Assembly (NCBI GenBank): GCA_020429485.1
Contig: JAGQLK010000013.1
Coordinates: forward strand, 1 to 14,264
From: Candidatus Dojkabacteria bacterium
Lineage (GTDB): Bacteria; Patescibacteriota; Dojkabacteria; B142; OLB20
Direction of reading: 5' to 3'
DNA: 14,264 nucleotides
The first letter of the stretch is position 1. Each line of letters begins with the position of its first letter. Made by a program: the position numbers and the translations under genes. Shown in pieces: positions 155 through 14,264 of the stretch. Below the pieces are notes generated by a model. The model had not been told where the DNA came from, did no database searches, and was given only the letters and a program-made list of their open reading frames with translations.

Positions 155-1264
155 ATGGCAGAATCAGCAATACAAAAAAAGAAAAAGAAAAAACAATCTA
201 TTTTCAATAAGTCATTATCATTTGGTAGTGGTGTCTCTCAGTTAGATGTAGCACTTGCTATAAGGCATCTATCCATTATGCTTAAATCTGCATTAGCTCT
301 ATCTGATGCGCTAACTAGTTTGCAGGCTCAAACTACCAATAAAAAACTCGCTGAAATATGGGGTGAGATACATGACGATGTAGAATCAGGCAAAACTATG
401 GCTGACTCAATGAAAAAATATAAACAAGTATTTTCAGATATTATTATTTCAGTTATAAGTATCGGGGAGCAGGGTGGTACATTAGAAAAAAACCTGATTT
501 TCTTGTCTGACTTTTTAAAGAAAAATTACGAACTAAATAGAAAAGTAAAAGGAGCATTGGTCTATCCTGTGGTTGTAATGCTGCTAACTTTTGGTGAAAT
601 GTCTGGAGTAGTTTTCTTTATATTGCCGAGTTTGGGAGCACTTATTGAGCAATTCGAAACTACTCCAGCTATGACACTATTTATCCTTCATTTGGCCGAT
701 TTCTTAAGAGAGAATATATTATATGTAGGTCTGGTTACTATTATTCTTGGTATTTTCGCTAGATTTTATTTTAGAACTAAAATGGGAATAAGAATTAAGG
801 CAATTGCAGCGCTTAAGTTCCCAATTGTAAAAAAACTATCTGAGGGTCAGACTTTGGCTAATTTTTCTAGAACACTTGGAATTCTATTAGAAAGTGGAAT
901 ACCTATTGCTGAAGCACTAAGTATTACATCGAATACCACTACAAATGTGATCTATCGAGAAAAACTTATAAAGGTAGCAAAAGATGTTTCTGACGGAAAA
1001 ACAGTGGCAGAGTCGTTATCGCAATATAAAAAGTTCTTTCCAGAAACATATACTAGAATCATCGAAGTAGGTGAACAAACAGGAACACTAGAAGAAAACC
1101 TTTTATATCTATATGACTTTTATGCAGAAGACGTTGAAGAAATAAGCAACAACTTAGCAACATTATTAGAGCCTATTTTACTTGTATTTATTGGGATAAT
1201 GATTGCCTTACTAGCTCTAACAGTCATTGGACCAATTTATCAGTTAACTGGAAGTATTAGTTAA
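155..1264 (+). CDS. pilC: Type IV pilus inner-membrane platform protein PilC/GspF
   Basis: This is a 369-residue membrane protein with the duplicated GspF architecture. Domain 1 lies at about residues 30-153 and domain 2 at about 237-358, and each has the helical bundle with an 'E.G...GTLE.NL' signature (GEQGGTLEKNL and GEQTGTLEENL). Hydrophobic segments follow domain 1 (two, around residues 135-210) and close domain 2 near the C terminus. The N terminus is a lysine-rich cytoplasmic stretch. Length is slightly below the usual 400. PilC couples the PilB ATPase to pilin insertion in the membrane. The ATG follows the pilB stop by two bases and no SD is visible, so translation is probably coupled. 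The next gene starts directly after its TAA. Confidence 0.95.
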   Translation: MAESAIQKKKKKKQSIFNKSLSFGSGVSQLDVALAIRHLSIMLKSALALSDALTSLQAQTTNKKLAEIWGEIHDDVESGKTMADSMKKYKQVFSDIIISVISIGEQGGTLEKNLIFLSDFLKKNYELNRKVKGALVYPVVVMLLTFGEMSGVVFFILPSLGALIEQFETTPAMTLFILHLADFLRENILYVGLVTIILGIFARFYFRTKMGIRIKAIAALKFPIVKKLSEGQTLANFSRTLGILLESGIPIAEALSITSNTTTNVIYREKLIKVAKDVSDGKTVAESLSQYKKFFPETYTRIIEVGEQTGTLEENLLYLYDFYAEDVEEISNNLATLLEPILLVFIGIMIALLALTVIGPIYQLTGSIS

Positions 1265-1726
1265 ATGTTAAAGAAAAAACTGCCAGCATTTACAATGATA
1301 GAAATCGTAATTGTAATAGCGATATTTACAGTATTGCTAGTACTATTCTTACCGATTGCAACTCAGCAGTTTACAGCAAATAGAGTAAAAACATCAGCAA
1401 GTTCAATGTCTTCAGATGTATATGTTTATCAACAAAAGGCATATAACAGAATAGATGGGGAATCATATGGAGTCTCATTTGGAACGAATACTTATACATT
1501 GTTTACCGGAACCAGCCTAGGAGCTGGTACTAATTTAGTAATAGTCGATCTCGCACAGAATGTAACCATAAGTAACGTGAATTTAGATGATGCTAGTAAT
1601 GAAATAGTATTTAGTCCTGGAGATTTGGAACCCTCTACATTTGGGACTATTACAATGACAGATGGTAGTACTAGCTACAACCTTGATGTGAATGCAGAAG
1701 GGTTAATAGATACATATAAGTTATAA
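1265..1726 (+). CDS. Type IV prepilin-like protein (class III leader)
   Basis: This 153-residue protein begins with a short basic leader (MLKKKLPA) followed by FTMIEIVIVIAIFTVLL, the type IV prepilin signature. Cleavage is expected between A8 and F9, which leaves Glu at position 5 of the mature protein (F-T-M-I-E). The -1 residue is Ala rather than the usual Gly, which prepilin peptidases often tolerate. After one hydrophobic helix (mature residues 1-25) comes a small polar, beta-rich head with no cysteines. It could be the major pilin or a GspH-like minor one; its size and its position first after pilC do not decide this. The start codon abuts the pilC stop. Confidence 0.9.
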   Translation: MLKKKLPAFTMIEIVIVIAIFTVLLVLFLPIATQQFTANRVKTSASSMSSDVYVYQQKAYNRIDGESYGVSFGTNTYTLFTGTSLGAGTNLVIVDLAQNVTISNVNLDDASNEIVFSPGDLEPSTFGTITMTDGSTSYNLDVNAEGLIDTYKL

Positions 1727-1733
1727 GTGTTTT

Positions 1734-3674
1734 ATGAAAAATATTAATAAAAAAATAAAGGGATTCAGTCTAGTGGAACTAGTAGTTGCAATGACATTCT
1801 TCTTCATGGTAAGCGCTAGTGTTATTGTATTCTCAATTGATTCTCTTAGGGCATCCAAAAATAACAGAACTGAACTAAAAAGTAACTTATATCTGCAGGA
1901 AGCATTTAATGCAATTCTTGTTACAAAGAACGAAAATTGGATAGATCTAGTTAATAATACTAATAGTGGTGATAAGCATATGGAGCTTATTAATAATAAG
2001 TATCAGATTGTAGATGGAACCGAGACACGTGATGAGATAACAATAGGATTCGTAATTGGTGATGTATACCGCGATGTGAATGGAGATATTGTAACCTCTG
2101 GTGGAACCTATGATGCGCTCACAAGAGAGATTATGTTGACTGCAAATTGGGAAGATTTATTAGGACAACCACAATCTGTTAGCTTTGTTTCATACGTTAA
2201 CAGCTGGAAGGTTGAGAGATGGTTGATGTCAACTGATGTAGAATTCGATACTGGTACATATGACACAACACTATCAGCAACTGATATTGACGATGGTGAA
2301 GTTGTACTTGAAAGAGTATTTTTCCCTGATTGGTGTAATCCAGAACTTACACTATCTGAATACGATATTATTAACCAAGCACATGCCAAAACAATATTTG
2401 CAACTTTAGGTTATGCTTTTCTTGGGACAGGAGGTAACTCATCAGGAACAACACTAACTAAAATTAGTGTTACCGGTGTTAATCCTCCATCGATTTTCGA
2501 AGAAGGAATTTTTGATGGGGAGAAAGTAAATGACATTTTTGCATTAGATGGAGATGTGGCTTACATGGCAAGTGATAATAATGCTATGGAAGTAATAATA
2601 TTGGATACTTCTGCAGAGCCGTTTAGTATAATCGGTTGGTTTGATGCCGAAGGTAGTGTAAATGCAGAATCTGTATTTGTAAAAGATGGAATTGGGTATG
2701 TAGGTCAGGGAAGGCGTCTTAGAACATTTGATTTATCATCAAACTATGGTTCTAGACCTGAATTAGGTGAAGTAATTCTTGGTTGGTCAGGTGCGGAAAT
2801 TACAAAAATATTTGTCGATGAAAATAATTATGCTTACTCAGTAATGGCTAATGATTGGTTTGAGCTATCGATTGTAGATGCTTCTGATCCTACAACAATG
2901 AGTATAACATCTCAGACTTCTGTAAATGATCAAGCAGTATACGACATGATTATTTCCGAAGATACAAGTAGGGCATATTTTGGAACAAGCGCATCTACTT
3001 ATGAAGATGAATTCTTCATTGTAGATACTAGTTCGAAGGTAGGTATTAGGCCTGTTGTTAGCTCATATAATACTGACAATAATGTGACTGGTGTAGCTGT
3101 GATTGAACAAGACAATAGAGCAATTATCACTGCATCTGACGAAGAAGAATACAAAGTACTTGATATTTCAGATGAAGCTAACCCAACATATTGTGGAGGA
3201 ACGCAAATATATAAGGGTATCTCCGATCTGGATTCTATTGCTGATCAGTTTGGTAATGTTTTCTCCTATATTATGACAGGTGACTCAGAAGCAGAACTTA
3301 AGATTATATTAGGAGGTCCTGGTGGTGGTGGAGAAGATGGGTACGCTTATTCGAATACCGGCTCTTATGAATCCCCAGTTTTTGATAGTGAATCAGTCTT
3401 TACTAAATACCTATATCTAACATGGCATGAGACAGGCACAGCAGCTACAGAATTGAATATTCAAGTAAGAACTGGTAATTCAGCCGATTTATCAGGTGAA
3501 ACGTATGTCGGTCCAGATGGTACATCTGCTACCTATTTTACTGAACCGAATGGAGCAGTTATGCCAGATATATTAAATAATAAGCAGTATGTTCAGTTCA
3601 AGGCTGACTTTGATACTACAGATAATGAATTTTCACCAGTACTAGAGGATATTAGTATCATTTATCAGAATTAA
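1734..3674 (+). CDS. Giant pseudopilin with predicted beta-propeller head, probable pilus-tip protein
   Basis: This 646-residue protein opens with a canonical prepilin leader and helix: MKNINKKIKG, then FSLVELVVAMTFFFMVSAS, with Gly at -1 and Glu5 present. Residues about 45-200 form a pilin-like head. Residues about 214-527 carry six or so repeats of 40-50 residues built as 'hydrophobic strand, aromatic-glycine turn, strand, (I/V)(V/L)D(T/A/I)S'. Examples are VIILDTSAEP, LSIVDASDPT, FFIVDTSS and YKVLDISDEANP, a pattern typical of LVIVD-like beta-propeller blades. A glycine-rich hinge (GGPGGGGEDG) near 528 leads to a C-terminal beta-sandwich-like domain of about 105 residues. The analogy is to PilY1-like or large minor pilins that sit at the pilus tip and bind surfaces; that role is inferred. 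It is seven bases downstream of the previous pilin gene. Confidence 0.85.
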   Translation: MKNINKKIKGFSLVELVVAMTFFFMVSASVIVFSIDSLRASKNNRTELKSNLYLQEAFNAILVTKNENWIDLVNNTNSGDKHMELINNKYQIVDGTETRDEITIGFVIGDVYRDVNGDIVTSGGTYDALTREIMLTANWEDLLGQPQSVSFVSYVNSWKVERWLMSTDVEFDTGTYDTTLSATDIDDGEVVLERVFFPDWCNPELTLSEYDIINQAHAKTIFATLGYAFLGTGGNSSGTTLTKISVTGVNPPSIFEEGIFDGEKVNDIFALDGDVAYMASDNNAMEVIILDTSAEPFSIIGWFDAEGSVNAESVFVKDGIGYVGQGRRLRTFDLSSNYGSRPELGEVILGWSGAEITKIFVDENNYAYSVMANDWFELSIVDASDPTTMSITSQTSVNDQAVYDMIISEDTSRAYFGTSASTYEDEFFIVDTSSKVGIRPVVSSYNTDNNVTGVAVIEQDNRAIITASDEEEYKVLDISDEANPTYCGGTQIYKGISDLDSIADQFGNVFSYIMTGDSEAELKIILGGPGGGGEDGYAYSNTGSYESPVFDSESVFTKYLYLTWHETGTAATELNIQVRTGNSADLSGETYVGPDGTSATYFTEPNGAVMPDILNNKQYVQFKADFDTTDNEFSPVLEDISIIYQN

Positions 3675-4165
3675 TGAAGAAAGTAAAGGCATTTACAATT
3701 ATTGAAACAGTAATCTATCTAGGGATATTTGCATTTATCTTCATTGCTGTAGTGCAATTTTATTTCACTGTTGCTAGAGGAAATCAATTAGCAGGTGAGA
3801 GGAATGAGATTCAAAAAGCGATAATTTTCTTGGATCAACATATGAAAAGCAGTTTTGAGTCATCTGTAGATGTAGACACTCTAAATTCTACTTTTAATAA
3901 TGATAACGGTGTATTGAGTTTAAATACTACAAGTGGATATGTTGAATATTCTGTTTCTTCAAATAGGATATTATTTGATGAAAATGGTACATTCTCTGAT
4001 TATGTGACTACCGATGATTTTATTATCACAAAATTTTACTTAGAAGAAATTGAAGATTCAGATTCAATTGTTGTTGGTGTTAAGATGACCTTAGATATAA
4101 GTTCACGAGTTCTTCCTGACACAGTAACTGAAACATATGTAACATCTTATATCTTTTTGGACTAA
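3674..4165 (+). CDS. Minor pseudopilin (PulJ/PilW-like)
   Basis: This 163-residue protein has the leader MKKVKA followed by FTIIETVIYLGIFAFIFIAV. Cleavage after A6 leaves Glu at mature position 5. The 'FTIIETVIYLGIFA' core resembles the GspJ/PulJ or PilW group of minor pseudopilins, followed by the usual amphipathic helix (residues 30-60) and a small beta-rich head without cysteines. Its ATG overlaps the stop of the 646-residue pseudopilin gene (TAATG, one shared base), a sign of translational coupling and of a joint role in one tip complex. No SD is visible. Assignment to a specific minor-pilin subclass is tentative. Confidence 0.88.
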   Translation: MKKVKAFTIIETVIYLGIFAFIFIAVVQFYFTVARGNQLAGERNEIQKAIIFLDQHMKSSFESSVDVDTLNSTFNNDNGVLSLNTTSGYVEYSVSSNRILFDENGTFSDYVTTDDFIITKFYLEEIEDSDSIVVGVKMTLDISSRVLPDTVTETYVTSYIFLD

Positions 4166-4174
4166 TATTACATT

Positions 4175-4555
4175 ATGAGAAAAATAAAATTACAAGGAGG
4201 AATAGCATTAACCACTGTAATTGTGCTAAGCGGAGTATTATTAACAACCGGCATAGCAATCGCTATTACAGCAATAGATTTAAGGAAAGCCTCGGAAGCT
4301 GCTACTGATAACTTTGTTGCTGAGAGCTATTCACTTACATGTTTGGATGAAAGTGTAAATAAGCTCAAATTTAATCCGACGTATACTGGTAATTTTTCAC
4401 TTACATTACCAGATGGCGATTGTAGCAGTGTCATTACTAATAATGCTAATCCCAACTATAAAGATGTAGCTATAATGAGCTCTAAAGGGAGAAGTATTGT
4501 TGAGGTGTCATATGTGTTAGATGTTTCAGATTACCCGTTTCAGATAGTCAACTAA
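4175..4555 (+). CDS. GspK/PilX-like pseudopilin lacking Glu5
   Basis: This 126-residue protein has a basic leader MRKIKLQGG followed by IALTTVIVLSGVLLTTGIAIA. If cut after G9, mature position 5 is Thr, not Glu. Loss of Glu5 together with a 'G-(I/V/M)-A-L' start is characteristic of GspK/PulK in type II secretion and of PilX-type proteins in pilus systems, which cap the filament tip. It has two cysteines (in LTCLDES and DGDCSS), possibly forming a disulfide. It is last in the pilus operon, nine bases after the preceding pseudopilin gene. Its stop interlocks with that of the convergent peptidase gene. The GspK analogy rests on the N terminus alone, because GspK itself is larger. Confidence 0.75.
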   Translation: MRKIKLQGGIALTTVIVLSGVLLTTGIAIAITAIDLRKASEAATDNFVAESYSLTCLDESVNKLKFNPTYTGNFSLTLPDGDCSSVITNNANPNYKDVAIMSSKGRSIVEVSYVLDVSDYPFQIVN

Positions 4556-5274
4556 ATAGGTAAATAGCTTGAAACTACTGGGTAAATATTATTCCAAAAA
4601 AGAAAAGTAATAATTGATCCGATTACAATAAAGGGTACAAATGGAATTCTTGTTCCTTTTAGCTTCCCTCTTCTTACTCCTAATAGTATACCAACAATTG
4701 AGGCACTGATTATTATTATATAGAAAGCAATGAATAGTTTTTGCCATCCAAGAAATAGTCCAACTATTGCCGCTAGAAATACATCTCCGAAACCTATACC
4801 TTTACCCTTAGTAATAAAATATATAATTGCTATAACTAACGCAGCCACTGTTCCAGTAATGAGATTATTAACGCTATAGAAATAACTATCTTCCCATAGC
4901 ATTACTTCATTGCCAATGATGGACCATACACACAGGTTTATTAGTATTCCAAATGCAACAAGGCTTAAGACAGGTAATAATGAAATCTCATAAGTGAAAA
5001 GATCCTCTATCAGCAAAAATAGTAATGCACTACAAACAATTATAATCAGCAAGCCTGTGTAAACATTTGTTATATTCAGGTAAATAAATAAATAAGTAGA
5101 AAGCAGTCCGTTAAATACTACTCCAGAGAGATTATATAGAATCATTTTATCTTTAGCTTTCAAGGCTTTGATCATTGAACTCTGAGGGCTTGTGTCAAAG
5201 TATCTTGTTAGAGGATAAATTATGTATCCTATTGCTAATGAAATAATTGTTAATACAAACTGTGTGGTATTCAT
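4552..5274 (-). CDS. pilD: Prepilin peptidase (A24 family, PilD-like)
   Basis: This 240-residue polytopic membrane protein is an aspartic prepilin peptidase. Both catalytic aspartates are visible: D91 in LLIEDLFTYEIS (family form 'xxxDxxxxxIP', with Pro replaced by Ser) and D164 in the GxGD motif (GIGFGDV, about residues 159-165). It would cleave the leaders of the four prepilin-like proteins encoded opposite. The N-terminal region (1-50) has one hydrophobic helix and a short cytoplasmic loop but no CxxC pairs. The zinc-binding, methyltransferase-associated portion of classical PilD is therefore reduced or absent, and N-methylation may not occur. Its TAG and the pilin operon's TAA share bases (CTAA), so the genes converge with a 4-base overlap. 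No terminator is visible between them. Confidence 0.9.
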   Translation of the reverse strand: MNTTQFVLTIISLAIGYIIYPLTRYFDTSPQSSMIKALKAKDKMILYNLSGVVFNGLLSTYLFIYLNITNVYTGLLIIIVCSALLFLLIEDLFTYEISLLPVLSLVAFGILINLCVWSIIGNEVMLWEDSYFYSVNNLITGTVAALVIAIIYFITKGKGIGFGDVFLAAIVGLFLGWQKLFIAFYIIIISASIVGILLGVRRGKLKGTRIPFVPFIVIGSIITFLFWNNIYPVVSSYLPI

Positions 5275-8257: not shown

Positions 8258-8740
8258 GTGACAGAAGAACTGTTCATACAACTTTTTAGAGATACAAATA
8301 AGTCGATTTATAATTTCGTATACTTTTCTGTAGGAAGAGATAAGCATTTAGCTGAAGATATCGCTCAAGAAACGTTTCTTAGAGCGTGGAAATATAGAGA
8401 GACATATAAGGCAAGCAAAGCAAATGTAAAAACATGGCTCTTCTCAATAGCAAGAAACTTGATAATAGATAATTATAAAAAGATAAAAGAGGTTAATAAT
8501 GAGAATTTAGATAGTGAGGATGTAACCAACATGTCTTTGTCTTTAGATGAATCGATTGATATAAAAATCGCTCTAGACAGACTTGATTTATCCTCAAGAG
8601 AGTTAATTACCCTGAGATATATAGAAGAATTGGAACTGAGTGAAATAGCATTAATTATAGATAAGAATATAAATTCAACAAAGGTAGCTATTCATAGAGC
8701 ATTACAAAAATTAAAACAGAACATTACTCATGAACCATAA
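8258..8740 (+). CDS. ECF-type RNA polymerase sigma factor
   Basis: This 160-residue protein has only sigma regions 2 and 4, the ECF (sigma-70 group 4) architecture. Region 2 covers about residues 6-75 and includes the core-binding segment DIAQETFLRAWKYRE (34-48) and TWLFSIARNLIIDNYKK (59-75), which is nearly diagnostic. A short acidic linker follows. Region 4 covers about 104-156 with 'LSSRELITLRYIEELELSEIA' and the DNA-reading helix NSTKVAIHRALQKLKQ. The start is GTG, fixed by the position of region 2 and lacking an SD. It overlaps the next gene, a membrane anti-sigma-like protein, by 11 bases, the standard sigma/anti-sigma pairing. The trigger is unknown, but an envelope signal is likely given the partner's large external domain. 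Confidence 0.93.
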   Translation: MTEELFIQLFRDTNKSIYNFVYFSVGRDKHLAEDIAQETFLRAWKYRETYKASKANVKTWLFSIARNLIIDNYKKIKEVNNENLDSEDVTNMSLSLDESIDIKIALDRLDLSSRELITLRYIEELELSEIALIIDKNINSTKVAIHRALQKLKQNITHEP

Positions 8741-10610
8741 ATCTACAGAACAATTATTAGAAGAGCAACTAAGGTCGCTAGATCAAGAACCTGATTCTGG
8801 CTGGGGTGATAATGTTGAGATCAAATTAAGAGAATTTATTAAAAATGATGTAACTAATCTCGAAAAAGAAAGTAAGAGTAATAGTAATTCATTTATTTTA
8901 TTTAATTTATTCAAAATGAACAACAAAGCAATTTTATTTACCCTTGGAATTTCTTGTTCGCTATTTATGTTACTAGGAAGTTCTGTAGGAGGATATCTAA
9001 TTTATAGAGGATACAACAATGATAGTTTATCCGAAGAGGAGAAGAGAGCTATTCTGACAAATGTATATAAGAATAATTCAGAGTCTGTTCTTAAAGCAGA
9101 ATCAGGTAATTATGCATTAGCTTCTGGAACAGGTGATTCTGCAACAATTACCAGTGCAATAATCTCCGATTCAGAGAAGCTCGAGTATACATATTCAAGT
9201 GACAAGACTACTATCTTACCAGGCAGTAAGGTAGATCAGTGCAAGAGTGTTTTTAATACAGAAGATGGAGTAACAATATATACATGGGAAAGTTACTCTT
9301 TCTATGAAGATGGTAAGAGCTACTATAAGTCTAAAGGTTATACTGAAGATAATTCGTTGGCTTCATATGCGCTTGGTTCATTCTCTGATACAAACTCTAC
9401 AGACTATATCTTCAATGGAGGTAGTTATGCAGTGAAGTTTGTAAATAACTATAATTTAGAAGTTACTGTATTAGAAGATACTGATGAAGTATACGTTACT
9501 GATGAAAATCAAGAAGAATTCTATGAAGATACTTTAATCTATGAAGATACAGAAGAGTTAGATCCTATCGAGTCCTACTTTGGCACAGATGTAGATGTAG
9601 TAGGAAAAGAAACTATAGATGGAGTTGACTACTATCTTATCCAGTATTCATATCAGACTGATTGTGATGCAGAGAGTTTTATGATCGACACAATGTATGA
9701 TGATTTTATGGAACAAATGGATGATTCAACTGCAGATGATAAGATAATTGAGCAATTATGGGTAGATACAAATACATTTGAGGTTAAGAAGTATGTTACT
9801 TTCTTAGGTGAAGCAACAAGTGATAATGCAATTATTACTACCGTAACTGAGTCCGACAGAGGTAACTTCTCTTTTGGTGATGTGTCTCAAAACTTCGAAT
9901 TCGAATATGATGTAGATGTCATAGAGATAGTTAACGATGAGAGTACTTTACAAGCAGAACAAAAGGAGCAATTGTTGAACTATGTTGATAAGAGTAATGT
10001 ATCTATAATTACTATCGATAATGAGTCTTTCGATATTGATTATCTATTTGTAAATGAAGAAAATATAGGTGAGGGCGATATAGATTACATAAATGATAGA
10101 AACTTCTATCCAGCAGGTGAACTCGGAGATAAGATGTACGCAGAAGCTACAAGGATACCAGATGAGTTTGGAAAAGGTATTACAGAGTACATCTCAGAAG
10201 GATTTGCACACATTGAAGGAGATGGCTACATATCTATCTCAATATTTGATGCAGCTGAGAATAGTAAAGAAGATATAGTGGATATGTGGATCCCTTTTGA
10301 AGCAACAGTAAAAAATATGAAGGTTGATTTTGGAAAGGGCGAAATTGATGCAGAAGTGTATACATTTGACTACTCAGAAGAAGTAATACCTGGAGTAGAT
10401 AGCACTAATTCTGCACCTGCATATGATGATGAGTTATTGAATTATAGAGAGACAATAATTATATTTGAATCTGATGGATATTATTATGATATTCATATAA
10501 GTGGTAGCTCAGCATTTGACTATTCACAGATAGGTATCCATATACTTGACCTTGGTGATAGTGCTGACAAATCTGAAGCTAGAAAACTAATTCAAAGACT
10601 ATTTGATTAA
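8730..10610 (+). CDS. Transmembrane anti-sigma factor with large extracytoplasmic sensor domain
   Basis: This 626-residue single-pass protein has a charged cytoplasmic head (residues 1-64, including 'EPDSGWGDNVEIKLREFI' at 20-37, which resembles the start of anti-sigma domains), one membrane helix (about 67-92), and an external part of some 530 acidic residues. No HxxxCxxC zinc motif is present. Within the external part, 'GKETIDGVDYYLIQYSY' and 'IIEQLWVDTNTFEVKKYVTF' resemble the beta-sheet core of LolA/RseB-like domains, which detect lipoprotein or envelope stress. Two external cysteines (C171 and C312) could form a disulfide. The ATG lies inside the sigma gene, so translation is coupled. 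Anti-sigma function is inferred from operon and topology. A hairpin terminator follows 15 bases after the stop. Confidence 0.75.
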   Translation: MNHKSTEQLLEEQLRSLDQEPDSGWGDNVEIKLREFIKNDVTNLEKESKSNSNSFILFNLFKMNNKAILFTLGISCSLFMLLGSSVGGYLIYRGYNNDSLSEEEKRAILTNVYKNNSESVLKAESGNYALASGTGDSATITSAIISDSEKLEYTYSSDKTTILPGSKVDQCKSVFNTEDGVTIYTWESYSFYEDGKSYYKSKGYTEDNSLASYALGSFSDTNSTDYIFNGGSYAVKFVNNYNLEVTVLEDTDEVYVTDENQEEFYEDTLIYEDTEELDPIESYFGTDVDVVGKETIDGVDYYLIQYSYQTDCDAESFMIDTMYDDFMEQMDDSTADDKIIEQLWVDTNTFEVKKYVTFLGEATSDNAIITTVTESDRGNFSFGDVSQNFEFEYDVDVIEIVNDESTLQAEQKEQLLNYVDKSNVSIITIDNESFDIDYLFVNEENIGEGDIDYINDRNFYPAGELGDKMYAEATRIPDEFGKGITEYISEGFAHIEGDGYISISIFDAAENSKEDIVDMWIPFEATVKNMKVDFGKGEIDAEVYTFDYSEEVIPGVDSTNSAPAYDDELLNYRETIIIFESDGYYYDIHISGSSAFDYSQIGIHILDLGDSADKSEARKLIQRLFD

Positions 10611-12230: not shown

Positions 12231-13604
12231 CTATTCGTAGATTCCACCGTCATAATACCCCTGACAACACTCCAAACCTACACTACATTTACCTACCGGG
12301 CCGTATGAGACTATGCCGAATACTAAAAGACATCGAACACACAAATTATGATCAGCGCTGTCAGATGCTAGAACAGATGCACTTGATGTCTCTCCTAAAC
12401 CAGCAATTCCATTATTGCCAAATGATCTTTGGCCTCCACAGTAGCTAGACTCGAAATCATTGGCATCCATTATTTCTATTTGTTCAGCTATACTTAATTC
12501 AGCGAACTCATCAGCGCTAACTATAGTATTTTTCTGCACGGTATTTACACCAGAAAGCTCGTCTAATTTAAGATAAGTTAGGTATTCATAGCCAGCTCTC
12601 AAATCCTCAATCTGCTGAAGTATGAACCTAAGAGCATTACTATTATCCACTCCTTGATCCAGTTCTTCTGTAATCAGAATACTTGCATCTTGGATTAGTG
12701 GTAGCACCTCTGCCAATATCTGTTTGCCTACCACGTTATCTATAAATTCTGCTAATTCAGGACTATTGTTAGGTATTCTATTCTCATTAATAAAGGTCAT
12801 TACTGTTGCCTCATAAGCTTCTTGAGGAATTGCGCCTGAGGCAAGCATAATGCTCACATCTTGAGTAGGTGGGTATTCTTCAGGTAACGTTGCCTCTTGG
12901 TATCTCTTGGCTGTAGCAGGAATCTGTTCGATCAATTCAATAAATTGAGCATGGTCGACATCTTTCTTTAACCAATATAAATTTACTTGTTCACGTCTTA
13001 GTACTGGATCAAACTTCCAGCCAAAAACCACATGATATCCATCATAACCTCTTTGGATGAGCTCTTCTGTAAGAAACTCAGGAGTAGGGCTAAGTTCAAG
13101 TATTATTGAATCGAAGTCGCCGCTAGCTCTAGTAGCTTTAGCTCTTTCATATAATGCTCGATTAGCGAAGTTTCTAGCTTCTTCACCCCTAGGTACTTGA
13201 TGCGAGTCAATCCCATCATTATAAATTGCTTCTAAAACAGGTATTTCCCAGTTTTGATCATAAGCGGCTAATGTATATTCAAGCTCTCCTGTTGCCTTTC
13301 GCCTAGCTTTTTCTGTTGAGGCTGTTAATCTATTGCTGAAATTTTCTTCTGTAAAGACTCCACCTTCTCGCAAATATTTAACTACACAGTTAATACTGTT
13401 TCCATATAAGTTGCCATATCGATTCTTATATTGATCTGCTGTATCTTTATTAATTAAAGCAGGAGCTGTTTCACTCAACAGTCTAGCTTTCATTTCAGCA
13501 AATGATTCAGGTCTTTGCCAAATTACCTCTGCAGCAAAAGGGTCCTCATCAATTAATTCATCTGGAAATTCTACTAGATTTTGTTGACTTAATTCTAAGC
13601 ACAT
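12231..13604 (-). CDS. Unknown 457-residue protein with Cys-rich tail, under cobalamin riboswitch control
   Basis: I do not recognise this protein. It has no signal peptide or convincing membrane helix and so is probably cytosolic. Residues 1-385 look largely helical, acidic and rich in Glu, Ala and Leu, with one more structured stretch at about 164-212 (FDSIILELSPTPEFL, then YHVVFGWKFDP and VNLYWLKK). After a Gly/Ser-rich linker (390-415), the last 40 residues carry clustered cysteines: C422 and C425 (CVRC), C440, and C446-C447 (ECC), with C389 just before the linker. This looks like a metal-binding or disulfide-rich tail, or a leader/substrate-like module. Its ATG follows AGAGG and six T residues. 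B12 repression or activation links it to cobalamin, but no known B12 enzyme, transporter or synthesis motif is seen. Confidence 0.8.
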   Translation of the reverse strand: MCLELSQQNLVEFPDELIDEDPFAAEVIWQRPESFAEMKARLLSETAPALINKDTADQYKNRYGNLYGNSINCVVKYLREGGVFTEENFSNRLTASTEKARRKATGELEYTLAAYDQNWEIPVLEAIYNDGIDSHQVPRGEEARNFANRALYERAKATRASGDFDSIILELSPTPEFLTEELIQRGYDGYHVVFGWKFDPVLRREQVNLYWLKKDVDHAQFIELIEQIPATAKRYQEATLPEEYPPTQDVSIMLASGAIPQEAYEATVMTFINENRIPNNSPELAEFIDNVVGKQILAEVLPLIQDASILITEELDQGVDNSNALRFILQQIEDLRAGYEYLTYLKLDELSGVNTVQKNTIVSADEFAELSIAEQIEIMDANDFESSYCGGQRSFGNNGIAGLGETSSASVLASDSADHNLCVRCLLVFGIVSYGPVGKCSVGLECCQGYYDGGIYE

Positions 13605-13665
13605 AAAAAACCTCTATATAGCAGAGGTTTTATGTAATTCCATACTTATTGGGTATGGCCTCTGC
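13605..13665 (-). promoter_or_regulatory. Riboswitch expression platform with switchable SD hairpins
   Basis: Read on the minus strand, the order is GCAGAGG (13665-13659), a 6-bp hairpin CCATAC/GTATGG (13658-13640, loop CCAATAA), CCTCTGC (13627-13621), TATAT, AGAGG (13615-13611), TTTTTT, then the ATG at 13604. CCTCTGC can pair fully (7 bp) with the upstream GCAGAGG, leaving the SD AGAGG free. Alternatively its CCTCT can pair with AGAGG (5 bp), hiding the SD and forming a small hairpin followed by six Ts. The two states exclude each other. This supports control of translation initiation, possibly with some termination. Which state the ligand favours cannot be told from sequence; repression by B12 is usual. 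Confidence 0.7.
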
Positions 13666-13677
13666 TCGGAGTTTGTA

Positions 13678-13766
13678 AAAAAAGATTGGTATTCGGACTA
13701 TTCTCCTTTATGGAGGACCGTTGCGGCACAGTGTAGGAATTTCACCTATCTTCCCCAATCTTTTTT
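13678..13766 (-). promoter_or_regulatory. Cobalamin (B12) riboswitch aptamer, compact form
   Basis: The minus strand contains the family's signature core in order: GGGGAAGATAGGTGAAATTCC (13757-13737), then CACTGTGCCGCAACGGT (13733-13717), matching the cobalamin consensus 'GGGAA...GGUGaaAaUCC...CuG..CCGCAACuGU'. A short hairpin CTCC-ATAAA-GGAG follows, then a B12-box variant AGTCCGAATACC. A long closing stem (CCAATCTTTTTT on the plus strand at 13755-13766 with its complement at 13678-13689) brackets the core. The peripheral arms seen in large AdoCbl riboswitches are missing, so the aptamer is under 90 bases and resembles the small class II or variant types. Position just upstream of the 457-residue gene and downstream of its own promoter confirms the orientation. 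Confidence 0.92.
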
Positions 13767-13796
13767 AATATAACTAATTCTTTTTAGACTTGTAAA
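13767..13796 (-). promoter_or_regulatory. Promoter of the riboswitch transcript
   Basis: The minus strand has TTTACA (13796-13791), an 18-base spacer, and TATATT (13772-13767). Initiation about seven bases downstream falls near 13760, at the first bases of the aptamer's closing stem, so the RNA starts where the riboswitch starts. The -35 lies directly beyond the pyruvate kinase stop codon. Confidence 0.65.
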
Positions 13797-13797
13797 G

Positions 13798-14264
13798 TTA
13801 ATTTTTGAAGTATTCTTTCAAGTCAATAAATTCGAATGCATTAGGGAATTTAGAATAATCCTTAGATGCATTACCTAGAATAACGATTTTATCTGTTCTT
13901 TTGATATATTTATTCTTCAAAGAAAAATCAATCATGTACTCGATAGCTTTAGTTCTATCTGTGTATTTCTTCATGAACTTATGAGCTATTACATTTTTAG
14001 TTAATTGTAATTGTCTTTTGTATAGATCATCGCTTACGAAAGCAATTATTTCTGTTGGAAGATTATATCTTGAGATCATTCGTGCTGTAGTTCCTGTTTG
14101 ACTCATAACAATAACTTTATCTGCTCCTGAAGACAGGGCTAACTCAAAAGCAGCATTTGTCATTGCATCAGTTACAAATCGATCTTCAAGCTGAATTGAA
14201 TCAATAATTTCGGGTATCAAGTATTGTTCGTTTTCTTCAGCTATTCTAGCCATTGTTTGAACTG
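13798..14264 (-). CDS. pyk: Pyruvate kinase, C-terminal part (partial)
   Basis: The open frame runs in from the right edge (…VQTMARIAEENE) and ends at TAA (13800-13798), giving about 154 residues. 'AVxTMxxIAxExE' closes the catalytic barrel of pyruvate kinase. The rest is its C-terminal alpha/beta domain: 'TDAMTNAAFELA', 'ADKVIVMSQTGTTARMISRYNLP' with the conserved 'T.sG.tAr.iSr.rP' pattern (Pro retained, preceding Arg replaced), then 'EIIAFVSDDLYKRQLQL'. The enzyme makes pyruvate and ATP from phosphoenolpyruvate and ADP at the end of glycolysis. The internal ATG at 14253 is not the true start. No terminator is visible after the stop, so read-through into the riboswitch is possible. Confidence 0.92.
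   Translation of the reverse strand, partial: VQTMARIAEENEQYLIPEIIDSIQLEDRFVTDAMTNAAFELALSSGADKVIVMSQTGTTARMISRYNLPTEIIAFVSDDLYKRQLQLTKNVIAHKFMKKYTDRTKAIEYMIDFSLKNKYIKRTDKIVILGNASKDYSKFPNAFEFIDLKEYFKN

What the first reader, a model, noticed from the sequence alone, without database searches (positions are those of the whole stretch)
12231..13796. Compact cobalamin riboswitch controlling an unrecognised Cys-tailed protein
The aptamer core is unmistakable (GGGAA, GGTGAAATTCC, CCGCAACGGT and a B12-box variant). The controlled 457-residue gene matches no B12 transporter, biosynthesis gene, or B12-independent isozyme I can name. Riboswitch targets usually relate to their ligand, so this is a candidate new B12-linked protein family, perhaps for cobalamin capture, storage or salvage in a genome likely unable to make it. 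The clustered cysteines in the last 40 residues could bind a metal or corrinoid. The riboswitch is seen directly; the function is inference.
Basis: partly seen in the sequence, partly recalled or inferred. Interest (0 to 1): 0.85.

Follow-up and report, generated by a model that had tools for sequence, protein, structure and literature searches.

The report
B12-riboswitch-controlled new protein family
A tiny-genome bacterium appears to switch one gene off with an RNA sensor for vitamin B12, and that gene belongs to an undescribed protein family whose relatives sit beside, and once are fused to, the enzyme that makes active B12, so it is probably a new part of how these bacteria scavenge the vitamin for DNA synthesis.

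Summary
Confirmed: an AdoCbl-II riboswitch (46.1 bits, cut-off 36.5) lies at 13765-13679 minus, before the 457-aa ORF. A covarying P13/L13 hairpin and a terminator/antiterminator pair just before the ATG predict a cobalamin OFF switch. The genome is a Dojkabacteria (WS6) MAG. The protein matches no Pfam, NCBIfam or PDB-sequence family but is not alone. Four relatives, found by protein similarity, all follow a cobalamin riboswitch. Profiles join them to two further subfamilies (E 2.5e-9 to 4e-6; reversed and unrelated controls 0.13 or worse, NrdJ's Cys tail excepted). I call the family SPP: invariant Glu, Arg, Ser, Cys-Gly, and a zinc-ribbon-like tail. Of 14 testable relatives found by similarity alone, 11 have the riboswitch. 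In Levybacteria and kin, class II ribonucleotide reductase, riboswitch, cobalamin adenosyltransferase and SPP lie together (9 of 11 loci); in one genome adenosyltransferase and SPP are one 538-aa protein. Best reading: a B12-repressed salvage factor acting with the adenosyltransferase to supply coenzyme B12 to ribonucleotide reductase. The genetic module is well supported; the biochemical role is inference.

The parts
13679..13765 (-). AdoCbl-II (RF01689) cobalamin riboswitch aptamer
   Evidence: 46.1 bits, gathering 36.5, E 1.4e-8; one hit in own genome
13660..13671 (-). P13 hairpin CUC-[CGAGCA]-GAG; loop L13 (13668-13663) is complementary, with one bulged A, to 5'-UGCCG-3' of aptamer loop L5
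   Evidence: P13 covariation over 20 selected leader rows: score 0.743 against 0.285 shuffled, 0 of 500; L5/L13 listing over 36 leaders; pairing read from sequence
13659..13666 (-). antiterminator 5' arm AGCAGAGG, shares bases with L13/P13
   Evidence: pairs with 13627-13620, predicted -16.9 kcal/mol for the arm-to-arm hairpin
13620..13627 (-). antiterminator 3' arm CCUCUGCU, shares bases with the terminator 5' arm
13605..13630 (-). intrinsic-terminator-like hairpin AAACCUCUG-CUAUA-UAGAGGUUU with U run, ending at the ATG; its 3' arm also holds the likely Shine-Dalgarno AGAGG (13615-13611)
   Evidence: hairpin -8.8 kcal/mol; forms when P13 is forced; Shine-Dalgarno read from sequence
12231..13604 (-). 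457-aa SPP-family protein, the controlled gene
   Evidence: homologues; profile homology to two further subfamilies
12804..13406 (-). core domain (residues 67-267) with invariant E98, R144, S172 (Ser-Pro motif); AlphaFold2 pLDDT 78
   Evidence: alignment of 16 cores, model, 30-row alignment
12264..12440 (-). C-terminal Cys segment: invariant C389-G390 and zinc-ribbon-like tail C422, C425, C440, C446, C447
   Evidence: C389 and G390 in 30 of 30, aligned C422 in 29 of 30
13798..14253 (-). upstream gene: pyruvate kinase alpha/beta (C-terminal) domain protein; also upstream in two relatives (L033 of G003, L036 of G001; recognised there by eye)
   Evidence: PF02887 E 1.2e-18

Best explanation
A cobalamin-class riboswitch turns this gene off when cobalamin is plentiful. 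Cobalamin binding pins loop L13 to aptamer loop L5; P13 then keeps AGCAGAGG from forming the antiterminator, CCUCU is free to make the terminator, and transcription stops just before the ATG. When cobalamin is scarce the antiterminator forms and the 457-aa protein is made. The protein is a member of an undescribed CPR family (called SPP here) that works in the same module as cobalamin adenosyltransferase (CobAT) and AdoCbl-dependent class II ribonucleotide reductase (NrdJ). I think it most likely handles the corrinoid between uptake, adenosylation and NrdJ (an escort or loader), perhaps with its invariant Cys in cob(II)alamin reduction. Shown by computation: riboswitch, P13/L13 covariation, family, riboswitch linkage, gene order, fusion. 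Inferred: OFF direction, ligand, and the protein's biochemical act.
For: Riboswitch. P13 covariation; L5/L13 complementarity with two compensated variants, L172 and L113. Mutually exclusive hairpins; antiterminator is the best fold until the U run is made, terminator when P13 is forced. Four of 4 relatives have a cobalamin-clan riboswitch upstream (L003 below curated cut-offs). Profile homology of three subfamilies. Homology-first finds: 11 of 14 testable have it. NrdJ, CobAT and SPP together in 9 of 11 named loci; CobAT-SPP fusion of 538 aa in L167. In Dojkabacterium G008 the window subfamily lies between a class II RNR (PF08471) and a CobAT. Other CPR riboswitch targets fit an AdoCbl regulon: DUF4430 genes, class I and class III RNR. 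No B12-binding-domain protein in any of the 9 Dojkabacteria genomes with SPP, so NrdJ is the only AdoCbl user seen there.
Against: Not next to NrdJ or CobAT in the window or in three of four close relatives. G041 has riboswitch and SPP but no NrdJ match (E<=1e-20), no CobAT and no B12-binding domain; G006 lacks CobAT; G015 has no NrdJ match. G159 and G172 have SPP without a riboswitch; L167 has none in its 288 upstream bases. No DxHxxG motif or conserved His; no significant fold match. SPP is also often followed by a VirD4-like ATPase gene, which points elsewhere. The unconstrained full-length leader fold already contains the terminator, so switching must be kinetic. No ligand test.
Confidence: 0.5

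Rival explanations
1. SPP is a component or substrate adaptor of a CPR type IV secretion-like machine that is made when B12 is scarce, for example to take nutrients from a host cell; its place near cobAT is operon sharing.
For: A VirD4/TrwB-like ATPase gene follows SPP, usually after a short disordered protein, in L091, L100, L102, L122, and follows the SPP-like candidate of L099, and in L168, L170, L172 (Pfam for L170, and L091). PrgI-like and VirB6-like neighbours by eye in L131 and L132.
Against: No such genes beside SPP in the five window-subfamily loci by eye. The fusion is to CobAT, not to a secretion protein. Seven of the 46 non-Dojkabacteria riboswitches sit before CobAT or RNR genes and 21 before DUF4430 genes.
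Confidence: 0.2
2. SPP spares B12: a B12-independent factor that lowers the need for NrdJ or controls it (for example competes with NrdJ's own Cys tail) when AdoCbl is low, like the class I and III RNRs that also sit behind B12 riboswitches.
For: B12-independent RNRs behind the same riboswitch: class I in L097, class III in L105 and L116. The SPP Cys tail is the only SPP stretch with any similarity to NrdJ (26 columns, hhalign E 6.5e-4). nrdJ itself lies upstream of the riboswitch in 9 of 11 named loci.
Against: Zinc-ribbon tails resemble each other by chance. Fusion with CobAT suggests a step before NrdJ. G041 has SPP without a NrdJ match.
Confidence: 0.15
3. The riboswitch is real but the protein's function is unrelated to B12; the gene was captured behind a mobile or ancestral leader.
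For: Riboswitch targets are not always ligand genes (general knowledge); 12 of 46 census riboswitches precede genes I could not assign; two SPP genes lack the riboswitch.
Against: Linkage kept across three subfamilies and several CPR lineages, with different aptamer subclasses, plus nrdJ/cobAT clustering and fusion.
Confidence: 0.1

Closest known systems
AdoCbl-II (RF01689) cobalamin riboswitches
   Same: Full-model Rfam match above cut-off, with a downstream L13 hairpin complementary to L5; that such a loop pair is usual for this class is recalled.
   Different: Ordinary aptamer. The unusual part is the target gene and the terminator abutting the ATG.
ATP:cob(I)alamin adenosyltransferase, PduO type (PF01923)
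   Same: Neighbour or operon partner of other SPP genes and fused to SPP in L167.
   Different: The window protein has no PF01923 match; SPP is a separate module of about 350 aa in the fusion.
Cobalamin chaperones and delivery factors such as MMACHC, MeaB or BtuH (recalled; BtuH seen only in a search listing, PMC8941943)
   Same: Proposed role: handling cobalamin between uptake, adenosylation and the user enzyme.
   Different: No Pfam or PDB-sequence similarity; CPR-only in what was searched; different architecture.
DUF4430 lipoprotein plus DUF6580 ECF-type S component
   Same: The other main gene pair behind cobalamin riboswitches in these bacteria. A passage of PMC4350170 places DUF4430 in transcobalamins.
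   Different: Membrane/lipoprotein uptake genes; the SPP protein has no such domain.

Membership tests
Cobalamin riboswitch, AdoCbl-II (RF01689) | Covariance-model score above Rfam gathering cut-off | tested here: met
   46.1 against 36.5 bits, model 1-81
Cobalamin riboswitch, AdoCbl-II (RF01689) | L5-L13 loop pairing with downstream P13 hairpin (recalled as typical) | tested here: met
   L5 UGCCG against L13 CG(A)GCA in the window; CGAGCA in 27 of 36 leaders; P13 covariation
Cobalamin riboswitch, AdoCbl-II (RF01689) | Binds a cobalamin and switches expression | not testable with these tools
   needs in-line probing and transcription assays
Cobalamin adenosyltransferase PF01923 | Pfam domain in the window protein | tested here: not met
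   no match up to E 1
Ribonucleotide reductase (class I, II or III) | Pfam RNR domains in the window protein | tested here: not met
   no match up to E 1; only the Cys tail resembles NrdJ's
B12-binding domain proteins (PF02310, DxHxxG) | PF02310 match or DxHxxG motif | tested here: not met
   no Pfam match; no DxHxxG in any of 30 family members
Zinc-ribbon proteins | two CxxC-type knuckles | tested here: inconclusive
   conserved C422/C425 and C440 columns in the family, but the window tail is CxxC-14-C-5-CC and Pfam zinc-ribbon matches are below cut-off
PAS/profilin-like alpha/beta fold | structural match of the core model | tested here: inconclusive
SPP family (defined here) | profile homology over core and tail; invariant E, R, S, C-G | tested here: met
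   hhalign E 7.2e-9 over 332 columns; E98, R144, S172, C389, G390 in 30 of 30

The most novel reading that the evidence does not exclude
SPP proteins are a CPR-specific class of cobalamin escort, reductase or loader that couples adenosyltransferase to class II ribonucleotide reductase, made only under B12 shortage; the family would be a missing step in how ultrasmall B12 auxotrophs turn scavenged vitamin into dNTP synthesis. A bolder variant is that the same B12-starvation switch also drives the linked VirD4-like secretion machine.
Probability: 0.35. Interest if true: 0.85.

Novelty: new variant of a known kind. Interest (0 to 1): 0.72.

Why it matters
CPR bacteria are B12 auxotrophs by inference, and the little that is known of their regulation is mostly guesswork. 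Here a riboswitch points to a B12 regulon in them: uptake genes, adenosyltransferase, B12-independent ribonucleotide reductases and an unnamed protein family that a fusion ties to the adenosyltransferase. That gives a testable function for orphan CPR proteins and a candidate new step in coenzyme B12 handling. My nine paper searches (open-licence PMC only) showed no account of it in their listings.

Tried and rejected
Led nowhere: Pfam, NCBIfam, PHROGs on the family (one PHROG of unknown function, one member, E 0.0076). Single-protein and alignment database searches gave only 2 to 4 proteins each. AlphaFold2 on the whole protein was poor (pLDDT 53.6); Foldseek and VIA on both models gave no significant fold. 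Viral contigs: no relative. A first profile comparison with few sequences was weak; only the larger alignments were convincing.

Considered and rejected: chance aptamer (homologues); ORF as artefact; B12-independent isozyme or transporter (no domain). Dropped from counts: G264, a 69-column hit at E 6.8e-4 that does not look like SPP; L168, only 57 bases of contig upstream; L088 and L108, SPP scores at chance level. L119 is a weak SPP by the whole-family profile (E 0.18) although its core aligned.

Full report
The observation. cmscan places one cobalamin-clan riboswitch in the window, AdoCbl-II (RF01689), 13765-13679 minus, 46.1 bits against a cut-off of 36.5, and it is the only RF01689 hit in the own genome at E<=1. 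The ORF at 13604-12231 minus codes for 457 aa and has an 89%-identical homologue on another contig. It has no Pfam match above cut-off.

Where it comes from. One homologue, P0003, is named for candidate division WS6 bacterium OLB20 and has a longest contig of 267,420 bases, the length of contig C2 of G001, a genome of the same family as the window's. The window is therefore from a Dojkabacteria (WS6) MAG, 77% complete.

The RNA switch. Right after the aptamer lies CUC-CGAGCA-GAG (13671-13660), read from sequence. The same hairpin, [stem]CGAGCA[stem], follows the aptamer in many CPR leaders: CGAGCA is found in 27 of 36 leaders listed. On 20 selected rows its stem covaries (26 cells changed on both sides; score 0.743, shuffled 0.285, 0 of 500; slid controls at most 0.282). 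L13 minus its A is the exact complement of UGCCG in L5. L172 (L5 AGCCG, L13 CGAGCU) and L113 (L5 UCCCG, L13 CGAGGA) show compensating changes; L112 and L047 do not fit. In the window L13/P13 shares bases with an antiterminator (13666-13659 with 13627-13620), which shares bases with a terminator ending at the ATG (13630-13605). Growing-transcript folds give P13 first, then the antiterminator until the U run is complete, then the terminator; with P13 forced the terminator forms. So cobalamin binding should favour termination: an OFF switch. The unconstrained full-length fold already has the terminator, so the switch would have to act during transcription. Ligand identity is untested.

The family. 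In 96 related genomes the protein has four relatives besides itself, 23-26% identical in the alignment; a profile finds the same five genomes among 85 of the class, all among the 10 of its order. All four relatives have a cobalamin-clan riboswitch directly upstream, three above cut-off; L003 is below (RF01482 36.8 of 50; RF00174 27.1 of 31.5). Four further Dojkabacteria genes behind cobalamin riboswitches (G015, G021, G034, G041) form a second subfamily, with four more environmental members. A third subfamily came from a riboswitch census of 379 CPR genomes. With enlarged alignments the three are homologous: window subfamily against third, hhalign E 7.2e-9 over 332 columns; second against third 5.7e-9; first against second 4e-6. 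Controls (CobAT, VirD4-like, reversed alignments) give 0.13 or worse; NrdJ gives 6.5e-4 to 0.0099, but only over 22-26 columns of the Cys tail. Over 30 members E98, R144, S172, C389 and G390 are invariant, no His or DxHxxG is conserved, and a Cys tail is shared. I call the family SPP.

Riboswitch linkage without circularity. Members found by protein similarity alone: four; G261 and G159; G251 and G172; seven new named loci (L166-L170, L172, L173). Riboswitch present: 4 of 4; G261 and G251; L166, L169, L170, L172, L173. Absent: G159, G172 (same family f73) and L167 (288 bases upstream). L168 is untestable (57 bases upstream). That is 11 of 14, 10 of them above cut-off. In eight of the 11 the riboswitch lies directly before SPP, in three before a cobAT-SPP pair.

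The neighbourhood. Of the 11 named loci, 9 carry nrdJ, cobAT and SPP together: six as nrdJ - riboswitch - cobAT - SPP (L166, L171-L175) and three as nrdJ - cobAT - riboswitch - SPP (L165, L169, L170; riboswitch positions-type scans 43, 49, 111, 119). The other two are contigs that begin at cobAT or SPP. In L167 one frame of 538 aa holds a full CobAT domain (residues 3-168, E 8.4e-63) followed by SPP (38% identical to L166 SPP). In the window subfamily, G008 has NrdR, a class II RNR (PF08471), a MATCAP-family gene, riboswitch, SPP, and CobAT on the opposite strand.

The regulon. Among 46 non-Dojkabacteria riboswitch places, 21 precede a DUF4430 gene, 4 cobAT-SPP, 5 SPP directly (one more, L119, weakly), 3 B12-independent RNR (class I in L097, class III in L105 and L116), and 12 I could not assign (own-built profiles for DUF4430, CobAT and SPP). 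Of 17 Dojkabacteria places, 9 precede SPP, 7 a DUF4430-type gene mostly with an S-component gene (one pair checked by Pfam; the rest by eye), and 1 (G083) a cobalamin biosynthesis operon by eye, on a contig that may be foreign.

What does it do. The only AdoCbl user seen is NrdJ: class II RNR model hits in 40 of 85 class genomes, CobAT in 22 of 85; the own genome has a truncated NrdJ-model hit at a contig end, below cut-off, and a CobAT fragment. PF02310 is absent from the nine Dojkabacteria SPP genomes. Fusion and clustering with CobAT, B12 repression and invariant polar residues plus Cys argue for corrinoid handling between uptake, adenosylation and NrdJ. Against: G041 has SPP and riboswitch but no NrdJ, CobAT or PF02310 match; G006 lacks CobAT; G015 lacks a NrdJ match. 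A VirD4-like ATPase gene often follows SPP in other lineages, so a secretion link is a live rival.

Verdict. The riboswitch is an ordinary member of its class; the protein family and its tie to adenosyltransferase and class II RNR are the new part.

Noticed in passing
L097 174-3672 minus; L105 328-2487; L116 1673-3778: B12-independent ribonucleotide reductases (class I NrdA/NrdB, class III NrdD) behind cobalamin riboswitches in CPR genomes.
   Followed up: partly
L088, L093, L101, L114, L120: Cobalamin riboswitches before long, disordered-looking proteins of unknown family; a ClpB-like AAA ATPase gene follows in L093 (Pfam) and similar-looking genes by eye in L101, L114, L120.
   Followed up: no
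L099 1432-2552: Two cobalamin riboswitches about 1 kb apart: one before a DUF4430 and S-component pair, one before a 542-aa unknown protein and a VirD4-like ATPase.
   Followed up: partly
G001-G007, for example G001:C2:233315-240030: Several class II RNR model matches per genome in the window's order, with two in one open frame of about 1,450 aa.
   Followed up: no
L170 9-2474: The nrdJ frame begins with a stretch that looks intein-like by eye; the RNR match starts only at base 999.
   Followed up: no
L005 1375-1420: The G001 homologue's Cys tail is in a shifted frame; sequencing error or decay, not settled.
   Followed up: no
window 155-5274: Type IV pilus-type cluster: T2SSF/PilC-like protein (PF00482), pilin-like small proteins by eye, prepilin peptidase (PF01478, minus).
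   Followed up: no
window 8258-10610: A sigma-70-family (ECF-like) factor followed by a 626-aa protein with no Pfam family above cut-off.
   Followed up: no
L032 (G083:C17): A riboswitch before what looks like a cobalamin biosynthesis operon, on a 5.4-kb contig of a genome with 7% contamination; probably foreign.
   Followed up: no
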